From a virus: a stretch of 32,389 nt of DNA. Both the position numbers and the translations under genes were made by a program. Positions 8,268 to 29,444 of the stretch are shown here, piece after piece; position 1 is the stretch's first letter, and each line of letters opens with the position of its first letter. The stretch covers positions 1-32,389 of the IMG/VR virus record IMGVR_UViG_3300032282_001664. One strand, 5' to 3'. The notes beneath the pieces are model-generated. The model was given only the letters and a program-made list of their open reading frames with translations, had not been told where the DNA came from and did not search any database.

Positions 8268-8569
8268 AACATAGAAAATTTTTAAAAGATAATTATAACA
8301 ACTATGAAACTGCAATTAGTGGTTATCTAAGAAATTTAGATTTAACATTAATGAGAACTTATGAGCATATATATAGAACATATGTTGACCCTAGTTTTAT
8401 TTTAACAATATGGTGTGGTCATTGTAGAATGGATATGGTATTAAGATTATATAATTACTATAATAGTTTACCAATAGAAAACATTATTAGTGAAAAAGGT
8501 GAAAAAAGTGAAGTAATTGAAACTGAACAAGTTATAATTAAAAAAACAAGAAAGAAAAAGAATGGCTAA
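8258..8569 (+). CDS. Conserved phage protein with CGHC motif
   Basis: 103 residues. The N-terminal two thirds are helical with LRNLDLTLMRTYEHIYRTYV and the motif WCGHCRMDMVLRLYNYYNSL (about residues 52-71); the C-terminus is a basic tail (KKTRKKKNG). Proteins with this WCxxCRxDM..LxxYY signature are frequent in Bacteroidota phages, in my recollection, and remain unnamed. The two cysteines could bind zinc or be redox-active. It lies just before the sugar cassette and overlaps it by 8 bases. Confidence 0.6.
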   Translation: MELEHRKFLKDNYNNYETAISGYLRNLDLTLMRTYEHIYRTYVDPSFILTIWCGHCRMDMVLRLYNYYNSLPIENIISEKGEKSEVIETEQVIIKKTRKKKNG

Positions 8570-9086
8570 TTATATACATCCAACTGCAATCATAGGTGAT
8601 AATGTTACTTTAGGTGATAACAATTATATAGGTGCTTATTGTATAATAGGTGACCCTGCAGAACATAAAGCATTTTGGAAATATGAACGAAATGTAAATA
8701 ATAAACATAATGGAATGAGAGAGGTTATTAGTGGTAGAGTTATAATTGGAAATAATAATATAATTACAGGATTAGTAACAATAGATGAAGGTACAGAACA
8801 AGCAACTTATATAGGGGATGATTGTTTTATTATGAAACACGCACATATAGGACACGATTGTACAATCAATAGTAATGTTACTATTAGTTGTGGTGCTAAG
8901 ATTGGAGGTCATTCTGTAATAGGTGGCAAATCTAACATAGGATTAAATGCAGTATTACATCAATTTAGTATCATTCATTTTGGTTGTATGATAGGAGCAA
9001 GTGCATTTTTTAAAGGTGAATCAGAACCATATACAAAATATGCAGGAGTACCTGCAAGAAAATTAGGAGAAAATAAGCCACGATGA
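8562..9086 (+). CDS. Hexapeptide-repeat acyltransferase, LpxA-like
   Basis: 174 residues made almost entirely of left-handed beta-helix hexapeptides ([IV]GxNxx repeats). The catalytic-looking AHIGHDC corresponds to AHIAHDC of UDP-GlcNAc acyltransferase LpxA, with His at the catalytic position. The following IGGHSVIGGKSNIG and the HQFSIIHFGCMIGASAFF segment also track LpxA. The C-terminal helical domain of cellular LpxA is missing (about 174 versus 260 residues), so the substrate may be another nucleotide sugar. It overlaps the neighbouring genes by 8 and 4 bases and is followed by two glycosyltransferases, suggesting modification of a surface glycan or a virion protein. Confidence 0.82.
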   Translation: MANYIHPTAIIGDNVTLGDNNYIGAYCIIGDPAEHKAFWKYERNVNNKHNGMREVISGRVIIGNNNIITGLVTIDEGTEQATYIGDDCFIMKHAHIGHDCTINSNVTISCGAKIGGHSVIGGKSNIGLNAVLHQFSIIHFGCMIGASAFFKGESEPYTKYAGVPARKLGENKPR

Positions 9087-9670
9087 ATGCAGTAATATAT
9101 TTAAACTATCAAAATAGAAACATAGATTCTCTGTTTCACAATATTAAAAATGCAGGTAAGCATATAGACTTAGTTAGTATTGTTGATGAAACAGGAATAT
9201 CAAATGCAATTAATAAAGGCTTAAGGCATATTAAGTTTAACTATATTGATTATGTTACCATTATTGGGAATGATATTTTAGAACCTGCTAATTGGTTAGC
9301 AATTAGAAATGAATTTTTACAGGATAAAACAATAGGCATATGTTCAATTCCTTTAGGTGGATTCAATGGTGATTCATTAGACTTGATTGGTAACTTCACT
9401 ATTACAAAAGAAACTATAAATAGAATAGGAGCATTTAATGAAGAGTTAGACCCATACGGAGCAATAGACTTAGATTACTGTACACGATGCAGAGCAGCAG
9501 GATTACATACAAAGTATATACCATCTATAAAAGCAACTCATATTGAGCAGAATGGTATTGATGTTTATGGTTATAACAAAAATGATTTAGTCAAAAAGAC
9601 TTGGAATTTACATAATGAAAATGTATCTAATTATTCAAACGGAAAAAAATCATACTATATTCCACTATGA
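9083..9670 (+). CDS. Glycosyltransferase, family 2-like
   Basis: 195 residues. GT-A features: an early VIYLNYQNR strand, ISNAINKGLRHIK (residues 39-51) as the usual asparagine-containing helix, then VTIIGNDILEP with a metal-site-like Asn-Asp. Then comes GNFTITKETINRIGAFNEEL with DPYGAIDLDYCTRCRAAGLH, the acceptor-side ED/DxDY motif of GT2 enzymes. It is shorter than most GT2 proteins (about 250-300), so it is a minimal domain. No membrane segment. It would transfer a sugar from a nucleotide donor in the cytoplasm, together with the adjacent GT-B enzyme. Confidence 0.8.
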   Translation: MNAVIYLNYQNRNIDSLFHNIKNAGKHIDLVSIVDETGISNAINKGLRHIKFNYIDYVTIIGNDILEPANWLAIRNEFLQDKTIGICSIPLGGFNGDSLDLIGNFTITKETINRIGAFNEELDPYGAIDLDYCTRCRAAGLHTKYIPSIKATHIEQNGIDVYGYNKNDLVKKTWNLHNENVSNYSNGKKSYYIPL

Positions 9671-10671
9671 GAATTTTAGCAATAACAAATAAATTTAGTG
9701 GTGTTGGTTATCATAGAATAATGATGCCATTAGTAAATATGCGTAAAGATTATTGTCTTATTACAGATACAATTAATGAAGCAGTATTTGATAATAACTA
9801 TGATATAGTAATATTTAATAGATTCTTAGCTGCAACAGATGCTAAGTTATTAGTACAAATGAAATTGAAGTATAATTTCAAATTGATAGTAGATAATGAT
9901 GACTATTGGATTTTACCACCTTCTCACGTTCTTGCTAAAAGATATAGTGAAAGTAATATAACAGATATAATTATTGAATATATGCGAGTTGCAGACCTTT
10001 GCACTTGTACTCACGAAAGACTTGCTGAAGAGATATACAAGTTTAATCCTAATGTAGAAATACTTCCAAATGCTTTACCTTATGGTGAAGAGCAATTTCA
10101 AGATAATAAGATTGAATCAGATTTAGTTAGATTGTTTTGGTCAGGTTCAGGTACTCACGTTCCTGATTTAGATATACTACGCAACCCAATGAAGAAGATT
10201 AACTTCCCTGTTAAGACAATCATAGCAGGATATAATCTAGGGGAAAAACATCTTTGGGATAGAATGATAGGAGTGTTTACTAATGGATTAAAGTTGAATC
10301 CAACTATATATGACTATGCAGAGATTACCAAATATATGGGTGCTTATGCAGATAGTGATATTAGTCTTATTCCTTTGGTAGATAATAAGTTTGGAGCAAT
10401 GAAATCTAATTTAAAGGTATTAGAAACTGCATCTAAGAAAAATCCTGCCATAGTTAGTAACGTACACCCATATAAGGATATGCCTGTATGCTACGTTAAC
10501 AAACAACAAGATTGGTATAAATGGATTAAACTATTGACATTTGATGAAGCAGCTAGGATAGAGTACGGTCAGAAGTTATTTGATTACTGCAATACCCATT
10601 TTAACTTACACAATATAAATAACAAAAGATTTGCTATTTATAATAAATTGATAGGCAATGCCAATATTTAA
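9667..10671 (+). CDS. Glycosyltransferase, GT-B fold (family 4-like)
   Basis: 334 residues. The N-terminal Rossmann half opens with MRILAITNKFSGVGYHRIMM and contains IVDNDDYWILPPSH. The C-terminal half has LVRLFWSGSGTHVPDLDIL, then YADSDISLIPLVDNKFGAMK and SNLKVLETASKKNPAIVSNV, the nucleotide-sugar binding E(x)nE-type region of GT4 enzymes. A short VPDLDILRNPMKK insert resembles phage-borne members of the family. No signal peptide. It overlaps the GT2 gene by 4 bases and the next gene by 14, so all three sugar genes are coupled. Acceptor unknown. Confidence 0.82.
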   Translation: MRILAITNKFSGVGYHRIMMPLVNMRKDYCLITDTINEAVFDNNYDIVIFNRFLAATDAKLLVQMKLKYNFKLIVDNDDYWILPPSHVLAKRYSESNITDIIIEYMRVADLCTCTHERLAEEIYKFNPNVEILPNALPYGEEQFQDNKIESDLVRLFWSGSGTHVPDLDILRNPMKKINFPVKTIIAGYNLGEKHLWDRMIGVFTNGLKLNPTIYDYAEITKYMGAYADSDISLIPLVDNKFGAMKSNLKVLETASKKNPAIVSNVHPYKDMPVCYVNKQQDWYKWIKLLTFDEAARIEYGQKLFDYCNTHFNLHNINNKRFAIYNKLIGNANI

Positions 10672-21537: not shown

Positions 21538-22806
21538 ATGAGTATGGAATTACCTTTATATATGTTGGAAATATCTGATGATTTGAGTGATGATGCAGAA
21601 GTACAATTCGTATCATTAGTAGATAGACCTGCCATTCAAAAGAATTGGAATGCTTTTAAAAATGAACAAAAGTTTCAGATTATTAGTGAAGATAAGCATA
21701 TCATTAGCGGTTGTGCTATGTTGGCTGACACTCCTATTTTTAGAAGTGATGCTACTTTTGGTGATTACTATGTGGCTTTTTCTAAAGATACTATTGTTAA
21801 AATTGTACAGAAATACTTTAAAAAAGGTTATCAAAATAATGTAAACTTGATGCACGACCCTAACCAAATAGAAAGTGGTGTAACAATGTTTGAAAGTTTT
21901 ATTAGTGATAAATCACGAGGCATTGCACCAATGAAAGGATTTGAGGATGCACCTGATGGCAGTTGGTTTGTTTCTATGTTAGTAGAAAACGATGCAGTAT
22001 GGCAAAAAGTTAAGGAAGGTATGGTTAATGGTTTTTCTATTGAAGGTATATTTAATTATGCACCTAAAGTTCCAAAAGAACAACAGGTAATGAGTGAGAT
22101 ATATAAAATATTAAATGAAGTAGAATTAGGTGGACCGGGAAGTGGCAGGAGACCTGAAGGCGGTGGTGACAATGAGCCAACAGGTTCAGTAAAAACTGTA
22201 TCTGCTGAAGATAAAGAAGTAAAAGATTTAGTTTCTAAAGCACAGGCAGCAGCACCTGAAGTGGATAAATTAGGCAAAGATTTAGCAAATAAATATGGTG
22301 CAGTTGTTACTCCTATTAATATGAAATCAGCAGATTCTATTGTAAGAAAAACAAATACAGAAGAAGGTGGTAATTTAGGTAATATAAAAGATGCAGTTAG
22401 AAATACTATAATTACCGATGACCCAATTGCAATGCAAAATATTATTAAAGATTTAAGCAATGACCCTAGAGTAGCTAATGGTAATGGTAGAGTTAAAACT
22501 CAAACCCACGAATCTAATCCATTGGGATATAGTGGTAATTTGGTCAATATAAAGACATCTAATGGCTTAACTGCAGAAATACAGGTAAATACACCTAAAA
22601 TGATTTATGCCAAAGAAAAGCCTGAAAATGCCAAAATGATACTAGGCGAAGCAAAGTATAATCAAATTGCTAAACAAGTAGGAATTGAAGGTGGGAAAGG
22701 ACATGACTTATACGAAAAGTATCGTGTATTAGTAGTTGGTAAAGATGATAAACAAAGAAAACAAATAGAGCAAGAATCTAAAAAATATTACAGTAAATTT
22801 TTGTAA
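21538..22806 (+). CDS. XkdF-type prohead protease fused to RelA/SpoT-like domain
   Basis: 422 residues. Residues 1-175 match XkdF-type prohead proteases: VQFVSLVDRPAIQKNW, DKHIISGCAMLADTPIFR, NVNLMHDP (His106), VTMFESF and NGFSIEG (Ser167), the likely catalytic pair. GGPGSGRRPEGGG (198-210) is a hinge. Residues 240-398 follow the RelA/SpoT synthetase pattern: MKSADSIVRK (262-271), IKDAVRNTII (283-292; Asp285, Arg288), GYSG (330-333), AEIQVNTPKM (346-355; Glu347), LYEKYR. The His of the usual GYxSLH is absent. It could make alarmones or pyrophosphorylate tRNA, as toxSAS proteins do. Being joined to the protease, it would enter the prohead. Confidence 0.75.
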   Translation: MSMELPLYMLEISDDLSDDAEVQFVSLVDRPAIQKNWNAFKNEQKFQIISEDKHIISGCAMLADTPIFRSDATFGDYYVAFSKDTIVKIVQKYFKKGYQNNVNLMHDPNQIESGVTMFESFISDKSRGIAPMKGFEDAPDGSWFVSMLVENDAVWQKVKEGMVNGFSIEGIFNYAPKVPKEQQVMSEIYKILNEVELGGPGSGRRPEGGGDNEPTGSVKTVSAEDKEVKDLVSKAQAAAPEVDKLGKDLANKYGAVVTPINMKSADSIVRKTNTEEGGNLGNIKDAVRNTIITDDPIAMQNIIKDLSNDPRVANGNGRVKTQTHESNPLGYSGNLVNIKTSNGLTAEIQVNTPKMIYAKEKPENAKMILGEAKYNQIAKQVGIEGGKGHDLYEKYRVLVVGKDDKQRKQIEQESKKYYSKFL

Positions 22807-22835
22807 TAATCAAATAATATTAGTAAATTGTGTAT

Positions 22836-23054
22836 ATGAGAAATGAGAATCTACTTACTGAAATTGCCAATGGAAAAGAGGTATTCTTTGAAAACAGTTT
22901 TGAACAAATTGCTTTCAGAAATATTCCTTCAGGTGGTTATGAAGGTAAAGAAAAAGGTGCGACCCCATACAAAGTAGAAGGTGCACCAAACAAATTGGTT
23001 GAAGCTATTTTAGAAGGTAAAATGATTAGTAAGGAAGAATATCAAAAATACTAA
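22836..23054 (+). CDS. Small protein downstream of protease-RelA fusion
   Basis: 72 residues: MRNENLLTEIANGKEVFFEN, SFEQIAFRNIPSGGYEGKEK, then VEGAPNKLVEAILEGKMISK and EEYQKY. The FFENSFEQIAF motif recurs, as I recall, in small proteins near phage head genes. The ATG at 22836 is preferred to an in-frame GTG at 22830. Its position right after the RelA-like domain makes it a candidate immunity or regulatory partner, alternative to the HD hydrolase. The 3' end overlaps the convergent hydrolase gene by 29 bases. Confidence 0.6.
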   Translation: MRNENLLTEIANGKEVFFENSFEQIAFRNIPSGGYEGKEKGATPYKVEGAPNKLVEAILEGKMISKEEYQKY

Positions 23055-23550
23055 TTAACCTACCTTTTAAATAAAGTCTTTCTAATTTATTAGATAATGA
23101 CTTATTAGATTTAGAGTATATAATCTTGAATTTATTTGATTCAGATATATACTTTTTTAATTTGTGGTAGTTTCTATTCCTTATACATTCCCTAACATTA
23201 CATATCCTGTCACATAGCTTTACTATTGAAGCTATTTCACTTTTAGATATATCAATATAATATTTATCTAATGGTGGAATTTTAGTTAATAGTTTTACAT
23301 TAGTATAAACTTTATTACTTATCTGTTTAAGTTTACTTTCATATAATGTAGTATCTTCTAATATGTCGTGCAATGCAGATACAGACAGTATTGTATCCAT
23401 TTTTATACCTTTGATATTATTTTGATTACAGAACCTTTCTGCTTCAAACCATACATCTAATAAATGGTATAGATAAGGTTTAACCCCATACTGCTGATAC
23501 TTATGGTATTCAGCAGCAAGGGCAAGTGAGTTATATTTTATTTTATTCAT
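23026..23550 (-). CDS. MESH1/SpoT-like HD hydrolase (small alarmone hydrolase)
   Basis: 174 residues. The HD-domain motifs of (p)ppGpp 3'-pyrophosphohydrolases are all present: ALAAEYHKYQQYGVKPYLYH (His29), ALHDILEDT (His61, Asp62, Glu65, Asp66), LTK (88-90) and KLCDRICNVR (Asp114, Asn118). The spacing between the ED pair and the HD pair, and between Asp and Asn, equals that in MESH1. No synthetase, TGS or ACT domain is present, so it is a stand-alone hydrolase. It is the last gene of the minus operon and convergent with the protease-RelA gene. Probable role: degrade alarmone made by the host or by the fused domain. Confidence 0.8.
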   Translation of the reverse strand: MNKIKYNSLALAAEYHKYQQYGVKPYLYHLLDVWFEAERFCNQNNIKGIKMDTILSVSALHDILEDTTLYESKLKQISNKVYTNVKLLTKIPPLDKYYIDISKSEIASIVKLCDRICNVRECIRNRNYHKLKKYISESNKFKIIYSKSNKSLSNKLERLYLKGRLISIFDILPY

Positions 23551-23557
23551 ATTTTAA

Positions 23558-24136
23558 TTAAGCATACCAACTAGAGTAAACTCCTTTTTCTTCTTTGCTT
23601 TCAATGAAATTGCAGAAACAACCGTGTTTTGCTGATATGTGATAATTTATGTTTCCGCTATAATTAACTGAAGTTACGATTTTTTTAAGAATCGGTTCAC
23701 CTACAAAATAATCTTTAATAGGCTTAACATTTGCACACATAAAACCTTCAGAACCTTTAACATAACTACTAGCAATTGCTCTCAAAATTACTGACTTTGC
23801 TTTAACTTCTACGATTTGATAGAAGTCAATATTAGTTTGGTCATATCCCCAAGAATTGTAAATGATTGAACCTTCTACATAATTGTGGTTCATATTCTTT
23901 TGTGCTTCCTTCTTAATAGCTTTTCTTTCATTATCACTATTAATATTCTTTTCAACTCTTTCAATCCATTCAGAACAGTATTCAGCCATTCTTTCAGGAC
24001 TTTTAAACCTGTAATTAAATAATGCTTTAGGGAATCTAGCTTTAGTTTTAGCTTTCATACACAGGGCAATGTTTAATTCTTCTTTAACAGTTAGGACATA
24101 ACCTAGACTTTCATACTTTTCAATTAAATTTTTCAT
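23558..24136 (-). CDS. Accessory phage protein with SWGYDQTNxDFYQV domain
   Basis: 192 residues. The N-terminal 90 residues are helical and basic (KKEAQKNMNHNY), as in DNA- or RNA-contacting proteins. From about 95 a beta domain follows: SWGYDQTNIDFYQIVEVKAK, SVILRAIASSYVKG, then GEPILKKIVTSVNYSGNINY and a KHGCFCNF-containing end with YSSWYA. The family is widespread in phages and of unknown function. The beta part is related to the protein at 13774-14256. It lies 7 bases upstream of the hydrolase gene and is transcribed with it. Confidence 0.65.
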   Translation of the reverse strand: MKNLIEKYESLGYVLTVKEELNIALCMKAKTKARFPKALFNYRFKSPERMAEYCSEWIERVEKNINSDNERKAIKKEAQKNMNHNYVEGSIIYNSWGYDQTNIDFYQIVEVKAKSVILRAIASSYVKGSEGFMCANVKPIKDYFVGEPILKKIVTSVNYSGNINYHISAKHGCFCNFIESKEEKGVYSSWYA

Positions 24137-24141
24137 AGTTT

Positions 24142-24432
24142 TTATTTTAAATTGTTTATAATTTCTTCAGTTAATTCTTCTTTATTTTCAGCCATCTTCA
24201 TTAAACTCAATAAATTTTCAGGTTTATAAAGAGTGCAAATGAATTTTACTGCTTCATCTTTATTACCACCATTTGAACACATTAACATTCCAAAAGTGTT
24301 AGCAATAGAATTTTCTAAAGCAGTTGGTTCAAACCATTTCATTTGTCTTAATAAAGACCTTCTAGCAATTTCAAATCCCCTTTGATTTGTTAAATACTGA
24401 TAAAGTTCTTCAGGTGATTTTTGATTTTTCAT
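24142..24432 (-). CDS. Hypothetical helical protein
   Basis: 96 residues: MKNQKSPEELYQYLTNQRGF, EIARRSLLRQMKWFEPTALE, then SIANTFGMLMCSNGGNKDEA and a helical end with LLSLMKMAENKEELTEEIIN. Probably all helical with one cysteine. It is the second gene of the minus operon, between the membrane peptide and the 192-residue protein. The family is not recognised. Confidence 0.6.
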   Translation of the reverse strand: MKNQKSPEELYQYLTNQRGFEIARRSLLRQMKWFEPTALENSIANTFGMLMCSNGGNKDEAVKFICTLYKPENLLSLMKMAENKEELTEEIINNLK

Positions 24433-24443
24433 AATTGTGATTT

Positions 24444-24545
24444 TTATTTAATTAGTAATTGGATTAAAACTGAAGCAATAGCTGAAATAATTAAAGCAAG
24501 TGATAACTTAACTTCAATTGGCGGTGGTAGGATTTTGTGACTCAT
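24444..24545 (-). CDS. 33-residue membrane peptide, first gene of minus operon
   Basis: MSHKILPPPIEVKLSLALII followed by SAIASVLIQLLIN. A proline-rich start and one hydrophobic helix of about 18 residues. The start lies behind ACCAAAAACAAACATT, the leader type used at 3562 and 13476, and is the first ATG after the minus promoter at 24610. The encoded MSH start (ATGAGTCAC) echoes GTGAGTCAC in the 13443 leader. The function is unknown. Confidence 0.55.
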   Translation of the reverse strand: MSHKILPPPIEVKLSLALIISAIASVLIQLLIK

Positions 24546-24578
24546 AATGTTTGTTTTTGGTGTCTCTCAATGACATAG

Positions 24579-24610
24579 TAAAAGTACACAGGTTTTAAAC
24601 ACATTCCAAA
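24579..24610 (-). promoter_or_regulatory. Bacteroidota-type promoter of minus operon
   Basis: On the minus strand: TTTG (24610-24607), 20 nt, then TACTTTTA (24586-24579), one mismatch from TAnnTTTG. The -33 context GGCAAATGTTTGGAATGTG is nearly the same as at 13391. It is the start of the four-gene minus operon that includes the HD hydrolase. Confidence 0.72.
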
Positions 24611-24638
24611 CATTTGCCCCACTTTTTTTGATAAATAT

Positions 24639-24672
24639 GATAAACGGTAAATATTAAGGATGAACGGTTAAG
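24639..24672 (-). promoter_or_regulatory. Tandem element pair upstream of minus promoter
   Basis: GATAAACGGTAAAT (24639-24652) and GATGAACGGTTAAG (24659-24672), starts 20 nt apart, are the reverse complements of ATTTACCGTTCATC-like units. The proximal unit ends 28 nt from the TTTG box at 24610, matching the other two promoters. A further partial GATAAAC follows at 24674-24680. The pair sits 40 bases upstream of the scaffold gene start and could also affect plus-strand transcription. Confidence 0.75.
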
Positions 24673-24714
24673 TGATAAACTAGCCTATTTATTAACATTT
24701 AAAGAAAAATAAAA

Positions 24715-25311
24715 ATGAATCCAAAAGAAGCATTACAACAAATAAGAGCATTATTTGAAGATATGCCACAAGTAGCTGCACCTGTTGCTCCTGTAGAACC
24801 TACAGTAACAAAGGTGGAAATGGCTGAGTATTCTTTAGTAGATGGAACTAAGGTTCAAATTTCTGCTTTAGAAGTAGGTGGTATGGTTCAAATGGCTGAT
24901 GGTACTCCTGCCCAAATGGGAGAATATCAATTAATGGATGGCACATCTATCCAAGTTGATGAAATGGGAGCAATAGTAGAAATAGCTTCACCAAAAGAAG
25001 ATACAATTGTGGAAGAGCCTGTTGCACCTGCTGCACCTGTTGCTCCTGCACAAGATACAACTGCTATGGCTGAAGAATTAAAGGCTGAATTTGCAGAGCA
25101 AAAAAGCCAATTAGAAGCAAAGATTGCTGAATTAGAGAATAAAGTAAAACAAGGTTTTGCACAAGTAGCTGAATTAGTTGAAGCACTTTCAAATACCCCA
25201 ACTGCTGAACCAACTCAAAAAGCAGCAAACGCATTTCAATCTTATGTAACTACTAACGATAGCAAGTACGAAAGATTGGAGAAATATAGAAACGCAATTT
25301 TAAACAAATAA
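24715..25311 (+). CDS. Scaffold-like capsid assembly protein
   Basis: 198 residues, acidic. The N-terminus is helical (MNPKEALQQIRALFEDMPQV), then an alanine/proline/valine linker, beta-like repeats (SLVDGTKVQISALEVGGMVQ, and again QLMDGTSIQVDEMGAIVEIA), a second APVAPA linker and a long coiled coil (about 118-160: ELKAEFAEQKSQLEAKIAEL). The end is basic (KYERLEKYRNAILNK). Coiled coil plus basic tail directly before the major capsid gene is the layout of scaffolding proteins cut by the prohead protease. Two VDGT/MDGT repeats are unusual. Could also be a minor head protein. Confidence 0.7.
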   Translation: MNPKEALQQIRALFEDMPQVAAPVAPVEPTVTKVEMAEYSLVDGTKVQISALEVGGMVQMADGTPAQMGEYQLMDGTSIQVDEMGAIVEIASPKEDTIVEEPVAPAAPVAPAQDTTAMAEELKAEFAEQKSQLEAKIAELENKVKQGFAQVAELVEALSNTPTAEPTQKAANAFQSYVTTNDSKYERLEKYRNAILNK

Positions 25312-25321
25312 ATTTATAACA

Positions 25322-26272
25322 ATGGCATTTTCAGTATCTTCATTAAGCAACTATACAAAAGAAAACGAAGCATCATTAGTGACTTCATCTGTATTAGGTG
25401 CAAAAACTGCTGCTCTTATTAAGAGTGCAGGTAACGTAATGGTTGGAGTTAAATCCGCAGAAACCATTAATATTATGGACACAGATGCTTTTTTCCAAGC
25501 AGGTGGTACTTGCGGTTGGAACGCATCAGGTACAACTTCTTTCACACAAAGAACTGTAACAGTTGGAAAGATTAAAGTACAAGAGGCTTTATGTCCTAAG
25601 GCATTAGAAGCTAAGTATTTACAAAAGGCTTTACCTACAGGTAGCCAATATGATTCAATTCCTTTTGAGCAAGATTATTCTGATAGAAAAGCTAAGACTA
25701 TTGCTTCTCAATTAGAAACTGCTATTTGGCAAGGTGATACTACATCAGCTAATGGTAACTTAAACAAATTTGATGGTTTAATCAAATTAATTGGTGCTGC
25801 TAGTGGTGTTGTAGATGCTAACGTATCAGGATATATTTCAGGTGCTCCATTAACTTCTATCACTGCTGCTAACGTAATTAGCTTATTTGATGGTGTTTAT
25901 AAAGCAATCCCTGCTAAAGTAGTATCTGCAGATGATATGACTATTTTCTGTGGTATGGATACTTTCCGTACTTATACAATCGCATTAAAGAACGCAAATA
26001 TGTTCAATTATGCTTTTGATGGTAAGGCTGATAGCGAATTTACATTGCCGGGCACTCCTGTTAAAGTTGTAGCAGTACAAGGTTTAAACGGAACAAATGA
26101 TGTTTATGCTTTAAGATTAAGCAACTTATTCTTAGGTACAGACTTATTGAACGAAGAAGAGAAGTTTGAAATCTTCTTTGCTAAAGAAGCAGATGAGGTT
26201 CGTTTTGCAGCAGAGTTCAAAATGGGTGTGAATATCGCATTCCCTGATGAAATCGTTAAAGTAGCAATTTAA
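25322..26272 (+). CDS. Major capsid protein
   Basis: 316 residues starting MAFSVSSLSNYTKENEASLV. Centre: YDSIPFEQDYSDRKAKTIAS and LETAIWQGDTTSAN; later VVSADDMTIFCGMDTFRTYT and the ending EVRFAAEFKMGVNIAFPDEI. The size, the placement after a scaffold gene, the strong terminator right after it, and the typical W-x-G-D-T near residue 136 (matching capsid P-loop-like hairpins) identify it as the head subunit; I infer an HK97 fold. It has a higher share of G/C third positions (AAC, GCA, GCT) than neighbouring genes, fitting high expression. Confidence 0.85.
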   Translation: MAFSVSSLSNYTKENEASLVTSSVLGAKTAALIKSAGNVMVGVKSAETINIMDTDAFFQAGGTCGWNASGTTSFTQRTVTVGKIKVQEALCPKALEAKYLQKALPTGSQYDSIPFEQDYSDRKAKTIASQLETAIWQGDTTSANGNLNKFDGLIKLIGAASGVVDANVSGYISGAPLTSITAANVISLFDGVYKAIPAKVVSADDMTIFCGMDTFRTYTIALKNANMFNYAFDGKADSEFTLPGTPVKVVAVQGLNGTNDVYALRLSNLFLGTDLLNEEEKFEIFFAKEADEVRFAAEFKMGVNIAFPDEIVKVAI

Positions 26273-27090: not shown

Positions 27091-27465
27091 ATGATACATT
27101 TAACTAAAGGCGAAACAAATATTGTTGTGTTAACTTTAACTGAAAAGCAGTTATTGACTAACCCAAACTATTTATTTGTATTTACTAATAGAAGCAGTAA
27201 TGCAGTTATAAGTTTTGTTAAATTGAATGCAACAGATACAAGTGCTTATAAAGATAGATTTAATCAATTTAGTATTGTAACTAATACATACTTTAGTTCT
27301 TCATTAGAAGGTCAATACACCTATGAAATATATGAGCAGGTTAGTACATCAAATACAAATCCTAGTGGCTTAAATAAGCTAGAAACAGGTATTATGTGGC
27401 TTTCAGGTAGTATATTAACATATAACCAATTTACAACAACAGACACTTATACAATTAGACAATGA
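27091..27465 (+). CDS. Conserved structural-block protein
   Basis: 124 residues, all-beta: MIHLTKGETNIVVLTLTEKQ, NPNYLFVFTNRSSNAVISFV, SLEGQYTYEIYEQVSTSNTN, ending in a threonine-rich strand. The combination T-x-K..NPxYLFxF....G.Y.YExYEQ is frequent, in my recollection, in proteins encoded just before portal genes in Bacteroidota phages; an immunoglobulin-like or neck protein is likely. The stop overlaps the portal ATG (ATGA). Confidence 0.6.
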   Translation: MIHLTKGETNIVVLTLTEKQLLTNPNYLFVFTNRSSNAVISFVKLNATDTSAYKDRFNQFSIVTNTYFSSSLEGQYTYEIYEQVSTSNTNPSGLNKLETGIMWLSGSILTYNQFTTTDTYTIRQ

Positions 27466-29444
27466 TAGATTTAAGAGTATTAACATTCGCAGAAGCTAGG
27501 CAACCTGAATTTAAAGAAAAGAAAGGGGTTGATGGTGGGTACATTAAGTATGGCGAAAACAATGACTATCCTGAATATATAGTAGATTTATATAATAAGT
27601 CATCTAAACATAGTGCCATTATTAAAAGTAAGGTACATTATATTACAGGCAATGGTTGGTCAGGTCAACCTGATGCACAAGCATTTATTGACAAAGCAAA
27701 TAGAGTTGAATCTTTAAACGATTTGACTAGAAAGGTATCTTTAGATGTTGAGATATTTGGAGGTGCTTATTTAGAAATTATTTGGGATTTAGCAGGTAAT
27801 TTAGCTGAGATGTGGCATTGTGATTATGTTAAGATACGCACGAATAAAGATAATACGCAGTATTGGTATAAAGAAGATTGGAAAGATAACAAGGTTAAAC
27901 CTGATGTTATAACTGCATTTAATCCTAAACAACCTGTAGGAAAACAAATTTTGTACATAAAAGAGTACAGACCTAATATCGGTATCTATGGATTGCCATC
28001 ATATTTTGCTGCATTAAACTATATTGAATCAGATATTGAAGTATCTAAACATATTTTAGGTAATGCACAAACAGGGTTTTCTGCTAGTAAACTTATTACT
28101 TTACCAAATGGTGAGCCTAATGATGAAGAGAAACGTAATGTTGACCAAAGATTAAGAAAGACTTATAGTGGTGCAGATGGTAAGAAATATATGATTGCTT
28201 TTGTCAATGATATATCTAGGAAGCCTGTTGTAGATGATTTAGGTACAAGTGATTTAACTAAAGAAGATTTTAGCAGAGTAGATGAGTTAATTCAAACTAA
28301 TATATTTAGTGGACATCAAGTTACTACTCCATCTATTATGGGTATTGCAGAAGCAGGTAAGTTAGGAAGTAGAACAGAGATGAGAGATGGTTATGAGATA
28401 TTTAAAAACACTTATGTAAATGCTAAGCAAATGCACCTTGAAAGTGTATTTAATATGTTAGCTAAATTAAAAAATGTTACAAGTGAGATTAAGATTATCC
28501 CTACAGAACCTATTGGTATTGAGTTTAGCGAACAAACTATTGCTGCTATTGCTCCTAAAGAATGGATATTAGAAAAAATAGGAATAGATACAACTAAATA
28601 TGCACCTGCAGATATAACTGCTCCACAACAAGGATTATCAGTTAATGAGCATATCAAGGGTTTAAAAGGTAGAGAATGGCAGAATATGCAACGCATCATT
28701 CGTGAGTTTACTAAAGGTAAAATTAATAGAGACCAAGCTACTGCAATGCTTAAAACAGGATATGCTTTAAGTGATGAAGAGGTTAATACTTGGTTAGGTT
28801 CAGAAGAGTTAGATGCTCAATTTGCAGCACAAGATTTTAGTGTATTCTTTGAATTTGGTGAGAATAAAGATGCTTATAATATTTGGAAGTCTAAAAAGAG
28901 ATTTAGTGATGAGGCTGACTTTTATATGTTTGCAGATGTCAATCAATTAGAATCAGACATATTAGACCAAATTGCTAAGCAGAAGGATATTACTCCTGAG
29001 GTATTGGCTGAAGTTTTAGATGAAGATGTTAATACAATTAATACAGTTTTAAAAGATTTAGAAGATAGAAATATTTTAAAAACTACTGAAACTAAAATTG
29101 GTAAAGGAATTAATAGCAATATAATAATTACTAGAGAATTAGTACAACCATTGAGTAAGACAGTTGGTGATGTAAAACCACAGACTACAGAAATTATGGT
29201 TCGTTATTCTTATGGTTGGAAATCAGGATTTGATAATAGTGATTTAAAGAATAGCAGACCTTTCTGTAAGGCTTTAATTGATGCTAATAAATTATATAGC
29301 AGAAGTGATATAGAATCAATGAGTGCAAGATTAGGTTATTCTGTTTGGGATAGAGCAGGAGGATGGTGGACAATGCCTAGCGGTGAACATAGTGAATCTT
29401 GCAGACACGAGTGGAAAACAAATATAGTTACAAGAAAAAAATAA
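27462..29444 (+). CDS. Portal protein with C-terminal winged helix and Cys/His domain
   Basis: 660 residues. 1-370 is the portal: YGENNDYPEYIVDLYNKSSK, HSAIIKSKVHYITGNGW, DVEIFGGAYLEIIWDLAG, GLPSYFAALNYIESDIEVSK, SRTEMRDGYEIFKNTYVN. Residues 395-450 are helical. 492-545 looks like a winged helix (ILDQIAKQKDITPEVLAEVL, TVLKDLEDRNILK). 575-655 is a compact module with SRPFC (598-602) and GGWWTMPSGEHSESCRHEW (633-651), resembling the Cys/His end of MuF-type minor head proteins. Typical portals have 400-550 residues, so a minor head domain seems fused. It forms the dodecameric DNA gate. Confidence 0.82.
   Translation: MIDLRVLTFAEARQPEFKEKKGVDGGYIKYGENNDYPEYIVDLYNKSSKHSAIIKSKVHYITGNGWSGQPDAQAFIDKANRVESLNDLTRKVSLDVEIFGGAYLEIIWDLAGNLAEMWHCDYVKIRTNKDNTQYWYKEDWKDNKVKPDVITAFNPKQPVGKQILYIKEYRPNIGIYGLPSYFAALNYIESDIEVSKHILGNAQTGFSASKLITLPNGEPNDEEKRNVDQRLRKTYSGADGKKYMIAFVNDISRKPVVDDLGTSDLTKEDFSRVDELIQTNIFSGHQVTTPSIMGIAEAGKLGSRTEMRDGYEIFKNTYVNAKQMHLESVFNMLAKLKNVTSEIKIIPTEPIGIEFSEQTIAAIAPKEWILEKIGIDTTKYAPADITAPQQGLSVNEHIKGLKGREWQNMQRIIREFTKGKINRDQATAMLKTGYALSDEEVNTWLGSEELDAQFAAQDFSVFFEFGENKDAYNIWKSKKRFSDEADFYMFADVNQLESDILDQIAKQKDITPEVLAEVLDEDVNTINTVLKDLEDRNILKTTETKIGKGINSNIIITRELVQPLSKTVGDVKPQTTEIMVRYSYGWKSGFDNSDLKNSRPFCKALIDANKLYSRSDIESMSARLGYSVWDRAGGWWTMPSGEHSESCRHEWKTNIVTRKK

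What the first reader, a model, noticed from the sequence alone, without database searches (positions are those of the whole stretch)
21538..23550. Capsid protease carrying a RelA/SpoT-like domain, with an alarmone-hydrolase gene convergent to it
Seen: an XkdF-type prohead protease (His106, Ser167) continues through a GGPGSGRRP hinge into a domain with KSADSIVRK, IKDAVRNTII, GYSG and AEIQVNTP, the ordered motifs of RelA/SpoT synthetases. Directly downstream, on the other strand, is a MESH1/SpoT-like HD hydrolase with every metal and catalytic motif. Known: toxSAS toxins of the RelA/SpoT fold stop growth by making ppGpp/ppApp or pyrophosphorylating tRNA, and some (FaRel) are neutralised by a stand-alone alarmone hydrolase. 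MuF-linked polymorphic toxins show that phages attach toxin domains to head proteins. Inference: the RelA-like domain is virion cargo delivered with the DNA or released in the cell, and the hydrolase (or the 72-residue protein at 22836) is its antidote. A head-protein toxin paired with an HD hydrolase is not a system I know as described.
Basis: partly seen in the sequence, partly recalled or inferred. Interest (0 to 1): 0.9.

Follow-up and report, generated by a model that had tools for sequence, protein, structure and literature searches.

The report
Phage head protease carrying swappable toxin
In freshwater phages the enzyme that matures the virus head carries at its end a swappable bacterial-toxin domain, here an ATP-consuming alarmone maker with its own two antidote genes; the toxin and antidotes are a known set from prophage and type VI weapons, but carried here on a different head protein in phages that seem to be strictly lytic.

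Summary
Residues 1-190 are an XkdF (S78_2) head-maturation protease; residues ~220-422 are a Tas1/Apk-type alarmone synthetase (PDB 6ox6_A: profile E 2e-51, model Z 23.4). This toxin-Tis1-hydrolase triad is already known as MuF-borne Apk2/IapK/Aph1, so the system as such is not new.

The carrier and its behaviour look new. Among 96 XkdF genes whose loci reach the scaffold gene, 24 carry the Tas1-like domain (24/24 with Tis1-like and hydrolase), 14 carry a Zeta toxin (14/14 with a different 56-57-aa convergent ORF, none with Tis1/hydrolase), 55 carry nothing (none of these genes), 3 carry other cargo. The cassette sits exactly at the XkdF stop codon, behind a GGPGSGRRPEGGG hinge, and has been swapped repeatedly. 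No integrase was found in 16 contigs of 29-36 kb.

XkdF is thus a second phage-head carrier of polymorphic toxins. Packaging and injection are inferred, not shown.

The parts
21538..22128 (+). XkdF / Peptidase S78_2 head-maturation protease domain, the carrier (His106, Ser167)
   Evidence: Pfam PF14550 53.8 bits over cut-off 24; His and Ser invariant in 9 relatives; followed by scaffold and capsid genes in all loci
22129..22173 (+). Hinge GGPGSGRRPEGGGDN at the natural C-terminus of XkdF; 62% GC in a 31% GC genome
   Evidence: 99.95th percentile of GC among 45-mers; lies in the pLDDT<50 stretch 167-217 of the model; no-cargo XkdF proteins end just before this point
22198..22806 (+). Tas1/Apk-type alarmone synthetase domain (toxin), catalytic residues kept (K263, K271, D285, R288, Y331, E347, Q349 in the 422-aa numbering)
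22836..23054 (+). Tis1/IapK-type immunity protein, 72 aa (GTG at 22830 would give 74)
   Evidence: Pfam Tis1_ImmP in 4 of 11 family members, best 2.4e-4, window itself 0.018; model pLDDT 88.6; Foldseek top hit 6ox6_B Tis1, prob 1.00, TM 0.71
23026..23550 (-). Small alarmone hydrolase (Aph1/MESH1-like HD protein), convergent; overlaps the immunity gene tail-to-tail by 29 bp
   Evidence: present only in Tas1-cargo loci
23558..24136 (-). g4, 192-aa protein of unknown function, present with either toxin cargo, absent without cargo
   Evidence: phrog_37844 1.4e-25
24142..24432 (-). g5, 96-aa protein, present in a few cargo loci of either type
24668..24714 (+). Right edge of cassette: ancestral XkdF stop plus scaffold leader (TTAAGTGATAAAC...TTAACATTTAAAGAAAAATAAA), same layout as in no-cargo phages
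24715..25311 (+). Scaffold-like protein (matches the C-terminal half of the protease-scaffold family phrog_24921)
   Evidence: in Nonlabens phage P12024S the XkdF-like gene is one 349-aa ORF
25322..26272 (+). Putative major capsid protein
   Evidence: phrog_1623 1.8e-11 virion structural, phrog_752 major head 0.008
27462..29444 (+). Portal protein
   Evidence: phrog_11226 1.2e-30

Best explanation
A polymorphic-toxin cassette mounted on a phage head protease. SHOWN by sequence and modelled fold: XkdF protease, flexible hinge, Tas1/Apk-type synthetase; directly behind it a Tis1-type immunity gene, then a convergent small alarmone hydrolase. SHOWN by comparison: the cassette sits at the XkdF stop codon, each toxin type has its own partner genes, and cassettes are exchanged between near-identical phages. 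INFERRED: XkdF, which must enter the scaffold-filled procapsid to process it, carries the toxin into the head; the Tis1-like protein (made from the same strand 30 bp downstream) blocks the active site and the hydrolase removes leaked product, so the producing cell survives until assembly is finished; the toxin, tethered or cut free at the hinge, travels in the virion and enters the next cell with the DNA, where it converts ATP into (p)ppApp-like nucleotide and arrests the cell. The incoming genome then supplies both antidotes. The likely benefit is host shut-off or denying the cell to rivals that lack the antidotes.
For: Toxin identity. Immunity fold. Hydrolase. Obligate, cargo-specific linkage 24/24, 14/14, 0/55: checked on whole contigs. 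Exact insertion at the XkdF stop codon. Repeated swapping: at least 7 changes of each label forced by well-supported branches, e.g. L016 (Tas1) sister to L070 (Zeta). Purifying selection on toxin 0.16, immunity 0.18, hydrolase 0.14. Toxin and Tis1-like protein co-diverge (rho 0.90) far more than toxin and carrier (0.38). A diverged allele (L045/L047/L049) shows toxin 55% and immunity 47-51% identity beside carrier 94% and hydrolase 78%; this fits the published specific IapK and interchangeable Aph1 (PMC12226406). The same triad occurs on MuF in Riemerella and on an Rhs protein in Vibrio.
Against: No virion proteomics, no injection data, no activity data. The acceptor-base motif syn3 reads G-N-L instead of the Apk G-x-N, so product identity is open. 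Maturation proteases are often degraded or leave the head, which would lose the cargo unless it is cut free. Most relatives do without cargo, so it is accessory. The benefit to a phage without lysogeny is not obvious, because the published rationale for MuF toxins rests on lysogens (PMC5576092).
Confidence: 0.6

Rival explanations
1. The toxin acts in the producing cell, not in the next one: late in infection the synthetase, released from Tis1 and the hydrolase or outrunning them, collapses ATP and macromolecule synthesis so that rival phages or prophages in the same cell cannot finish.
For: The fusion is encoded among the late head genes; the hydrolase is on the opposite strand and so need not be co-expressed with the toxin.
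Against: Two antidotes in 24/24 loci imply that the producer is meant to stay protected; diffusible antidotes would shield rivals in the same cell as well; exchange of whole domains at a head-protein C-terminus is the pattern of delivered polymorphic toxins.
Confidence: 0.2
2. Selfish addiction cassette: toxin plus antidotes keep themselves in the phage population, since recombinants that lose the antidotes but keep the toxin die; no benefit to the phage is needed.
For: Accessory, discrete, repeatedly exchanged cassette at one site.
Against: Carriage by a head protein and not as a free toxin-antitoxin pair; no-cargo phages are common and near-identical, so loss is clearly tolerated.
Confidence: 0.12
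3. Structural rather than toxic use: the C-terminal domain is an inert or regulatory appendage of the protease.
For: XkdF is essential head machinery and other short extensions exist (L122, L341).
Against: Catalytic residues invariant, dedicated immunity-type partner, replacement by an unrelated toxin with its own partner.
Confidence: 0.05

Closest known systems
Apk2 / IapK (Tis1) / Aph1 of prophages (S. pneumoniae, M. haemolytica, B. caccae; PMC12226406, and works cited there)
   Same: Phage head protein with a C-terminal Tas1-like synthetase, a specific small inhibitor next to it, and an HD alarmone hydrolase; same gene order toxin-inhibitor-hydrolase
   Different: Carrier is MuF there, XkdF protease here; hydrolase codirectional there, convergent and tail-overlapping here; temperate phages there, no integrase found here; syn3 motif differs
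Tas1-Tis1 (Apk1) of the P. aeruginosa type VI secretion system, PDB 6ox6
   Same: Toxin fold (Z 23.4, 36% identity) and immunity fold (TM 0.71)
   Different: PAAR/T6SS delivery; no phage carrier
MuF polymorphic toxins, including Bxa (PMC5576092, PMC11699363, PMC3482391)
   Same: Conserved phage-head N-terminus, variable toxin C-terminus, matching immunity genes; RelA-like and (PMC5512222) zeta-like cargo known on MuF
   Different: The carrier is the maturation protease rather than the minor head protein; no paper found that describes XkdF as a carrier
toxSAS toxin-antitoxin systems (FaRel, FaRel2, CapRel)
   Same: RelA/SpoT-fold toxin, antidote by inhibitor or hydrolase
   Different: Stand-alone TA genes; weaker structural match (CapRel Z 12.5, FaRel2 Z 7.8 against 23.4 for Tas1)

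Membership tests
Tas1/Apk adenosine 3'-pyrophosphokinase domain | Sequence and fold of the Tas1 toxin domain | tested here: met
   E 3.6e-29 / profile 2.1e-51 / Z 23.4
Tas1/Apk adenosine 3'-pyrophosphokinase domain | Catalytic Lys, KD..R, GY.G, E.Q residues | tested here: met
   Core residues invariant in 11 diverse homologues
Tas1/Apk adenosine 3'-pyrophosphokinase domain | Adenosine signature at syn2 (RxT), syn3 (GxN), syn4 | tested here: inconclusive
   RNT as in Tas1; syn4 VN as in Tas1; syn3 G-N-L where Tas1 has G-V-N
Tas1/Apk adenosine 3'-pyrophosphokinase domain | Makes (p)ppApp | not testable with these tools
   needs enzyme assay
Apk2 (MuF polymorphic toxin) | N-terminal MuF domain | tested here: not met
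   N-terminus is Peptidase_S78_2
Apk2 (MuF polymorphic toxin) | Carried by temperate phage | tested here: inconclusive
   No tyrosine or serine integrase in 16 related contigs of 29-36 kb, which speaks against it; other lysogeny routes and missing ends not excluded
Tis1/IapK immunity | Tis1 fold | tested here: met
   6ox6_B top hit, prob 1.00, TM 0.71/0.68, next hit E 0.8
Tis1/IapK immunity | Pfam PF24154 above its curated cut-off | tested here: not met
   15.6 against 27 bits for the window protein; best family member E 2.4e-4
Tis1/IapK immunity | Adjacent to and co-evolving with the toxin | tested here: met
   24/24 loci; rho 0.90
Tis1/IapK immunity | Binds and blocks the toxin | not testable with these tools
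   complex prediction and binding assay not available here
Aph1 / small alarmone hydrolase | HD-hydrolase motifs H, H, HD, ED, D..N | tested here: met
   Invariant H16, H29, H61-D62, E65-D66, D114, N118; profile hits SAH 3.5e-13, MESH1 about 1e-5, (p)ppApp hydrolase 7smg 7e-4
Aph1 / small alarmone hydrolase | Hydrolyses (p)ppApp | not testable with these tools
   needs assay
XkdF / Peptidase S78_2 | Family profile and catalytic His/Ser | tested here: met
Polymorphic toxin family (general) | Constant N-terminus, exchangeable C-terminal toxins, each with its own partner gene | tested here: met
   Tas1, Zeta, other, none on the same XkdF; partner genes follow the toxin
Polymorphic toxin family (general) | Delivery to another cell | not testable with these tools
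   needs virion proteomics and infection assays

The most novel reading that the evidence does not exclude
XkdF-type maturation proteases are a second, independent phage-head carrier of polymorphic toxins, and strictly lytic phages use it: they pack an exchangeable enzyme toxin in the head and inject it at the start of infection, each with its own antidote set, making lytic phages users of a weapon class so far tied to lysogens and secretion systems.
Probability: 0.45. Interest if true: 0.8.

Novelty: new variant of a known kind. Interest (0 to 1): 0.64.

Why it matters
What phage-head toxins are for is an open question, and the current model leans on lysogens protecting themselves and killing neighbours. 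Here the same toxin-antidote set sits in phages with no sign of lysogeny, next to near-identical sister phages that carry a different toxin or none. That gives natural with/without pairs in which the role of head-borne toxins can be tested directly, and a protease carrier that would place the toxin inside the procapsid and could also cut it free.

Tried and rejected
The FaRel/CapRel toxSAS reading: these rank far below Tas1 in structure. The hydrolase as sole antidote: the 72-aa protein matches Tis1 and tracks the toxin more closely. Search for the immunity protein in annotated phages: no match. Bacteroidetes-type promoters for the minus-strand genes: matches no more than chance; sigma-70 and terminator scan also at chance level. 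L168 cargo as an ADP-ribosyltransferase: my first impression from the sequence, no support in Pfam, PHROGs or PDB sequences, so left unidentified. The genome-contig scan found only 8 relatives of the toxin domain, none adding an XkdF carrier among the readable ones. The full-length model gives a poor XkdF half (pTM 0.49), so nothing is claimed from it for the protease fold.

Full report
What is in the window. The record is a virus contig of 32,389 bases with terminase, portal, capsid, tail, endolysin and replication genes. The finding's ORF, 21538-22806, is one uninterrupted 422-aa protein. Its first ~190 residues are an XkdF/S78_2 head-maturation protease (Pfam 53.8 bits, cut-off 24) with His106 and Ser167, both invariant in nine relatives. 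The last ~200 residues match Tas1, the type VI (p)ppApp synthetase of P. aeruginosa: it is the only PDB sequence hit (3.6e-29; family profile 2.1e-51), and the modelled domain (pLDDT about 89) superposes on 6ox6_A with Z 23.4 over 192 residues, against 13.6 for the next best, a Bacillus small alarmone synthetase. Catalytic residues are invariant in 11 diverse homologues. Between the domains lies a stretch of low confidence (167-217) holding GGPGSGRRPEGGG.

The two partner genes. The 72-aa protein at 22836 is the Tis1/IapK-type immunity protein. Pfam Tis1_ImmP is matched by 4 of 11 family members (best 2.4e-4; the window's own protein 0.018, below the curated cut-off). Its model (pLDDT 88.6) has as top Foldseek hit 6ox6_B, the Tis1 chain of the Tas1-Tis1 complex (prob 1.00, TM 0.71; the next hit has E 0.8). 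The convergent ORF 23026-23550 is a small alarmone hydrolase with all HD motifs (among the profile hits is 7smg, '(p)ppApp hydrolase', 7e-4). It overlaps the immunity gene tail to tail by 29 bp, and the same kind of overlap recurs in the relatives.

Linkage test. I fetched 80 of 354 viral contigs encoding a close relative of the XkdF part and further ones with more distant queries. Sorting distinct XkdF genes whose locus reaches the scaffold gene (96 of 97): Tas1-like cargo 24, all with the Tis1-like gene and the hydrolase; Zeta-toxin cargo 14 (PF06414 1.6e-24), none with those genes, all with a conserved 56-57-aa convergent ORF in the hydrolase's place; no cargo 55, none with any of these genes; other cargo 3. 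Whole-contig searches confirm that the hydrolase is absent from the contigs of 13 relatives with Zeta or no cargo and that g4 occurs only with cargo.

Cassette anatomy. XkdF proteins without cargo end exactly where the hinge begins. Just upstream of the scaffold gene, cargo phages keep the sequence TTAAGTGATAAAC...TTAACATTTAAAGAAAAATAAA that in no-cargo phages is the XkdF stop codon plus scaffold leader. So about 2.5 kb (22129-24668) sits at the XkdF stop codon. The hinge DNA is 62% GC in a 31% GC genome; inference: it may serve as a recombination joint. On an XkdF-core tree the cargo state changes at least 19 times in all, with at least 7 changes each for the Tas1-like and Zeta labels forced by well-supported branches; L016 (Tas1) and L070 (Zeta) are sisters, and L066/L067 (Zeta) lie inside a Tas1 group. 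Toxin, immunity and hydrolase are under purifying selection (median dN/dS 0.16, 0.18, 0.14). Toxin divergence tracks immunity divergence (rho 0.90) more than hydrolase (0.65) or carrier (0.38). Pairs are not independent, so these are descriptive. In L045/L047/L049 toxin and immunity are a diverged allele (55% and 47-51%) beside a 94% identical carrier and a 78% identical hydrolase. This is what the published division of labour predicts: IapK specific to its toxin, Aph1 interchangeable (PMC12226406).

Comparison with what is known. MuF-Apk2 toxins with IapK and Aph1 are published (PMC12226406; PMC11699363 cites the founding papers, which are not held), RelA-like cargo on MuF was noted in 2012 and 2017 (PMC3482391, PMC5576092), and zeta-like kinases on MuF too (PMC5512222). 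I found the MuF triad in Riemerella prophages and an Rhs-borne triad in Vibrio penaeicida. So the toxin-antidote set is known. I found no description of XkdF as a toxin carrier and no annotated phage record covering at least 80% of either fusion protein. The literature search covers open-licence papers only. MuF toxins were reported as tied to temperate phages (PMC5576092); here no tyrosine or serine integrase was found in 16 contigs of 29-36 kb, which suggests but does not prove a lytic life style.

Mechanism, with steps marked. Shown: domain identities, partner genes, cassette swapping. Inferred: entry of the fusion into the procapsid through the protease part, protection of the producing cell by two antidotes, presence in the virion, entry into the next cell, nucleotide poisoning there. 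The acceptor-base motif differs from the published adenosine signature at one of three sites (G-N-L for G-x-N), so the product could be (p)ppApp or a related nucleotide. The gain for a lytic phage is open: host shut-off, or making cells unusable to rivals lacking the antidotes.

Noticed in passing
L041:5001-6621 (and 13 other loci): Same XkdF carrier with a Zeta-toxin domain, followed by a conserved convergent 56-57-aa ORF without any family match; a candidate new antidote of a Zeta kinase.
   Followed up: partly
window 23558-24136 (-): g4 accompanies both toxin types and is absent from whole contigs of cargo-free relatives; function unknown (phrog_37844).
   Followed up: partly
L168:2229-2765; L122:2179-2529; L341: Other XkdF extensions behind the same hinge: one 179-aa domain with no partner gene and no family match, and a short ~115-aa one that ends in a copy of the XkdF tail.
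   Followed up: partly
L138, L186, L129, L153, L177 and others: The hinge GGPGSGRxPEGG recurs in apparently unrelated phage proteins ahead of variable C-terminal parts, twice or three times within some proteins; it may be a general joint for swapping domains in phage proteins.
   Followed up: no
L308, L031, L032: MuF-like proteins with the Tas1-like domain followed by a small ORF but no hydrolase nearby, so the hydrolase is not always needed.
   Followed up: no
L306:1487-5225: Vibrio penaeicida Rhs protein ending in the Tas1-like domain, followed by Tis1-like and HD genes.
   Followed up: no
L220:179-1228: In Nonlabens phage P12024S the XkdF-like gene is a single 349-aa ORF whose family (phrog_24921) joins protease and scaffold; in the window these are separate genes with the cassette between them.
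   Followed up: partly
window 8562-10671: Acyltransferase-like and two glycosyltransferase-like genes in the phage genome (phrog_5353, 2456, 7162), possibly for surface modification.
   Followed up: no
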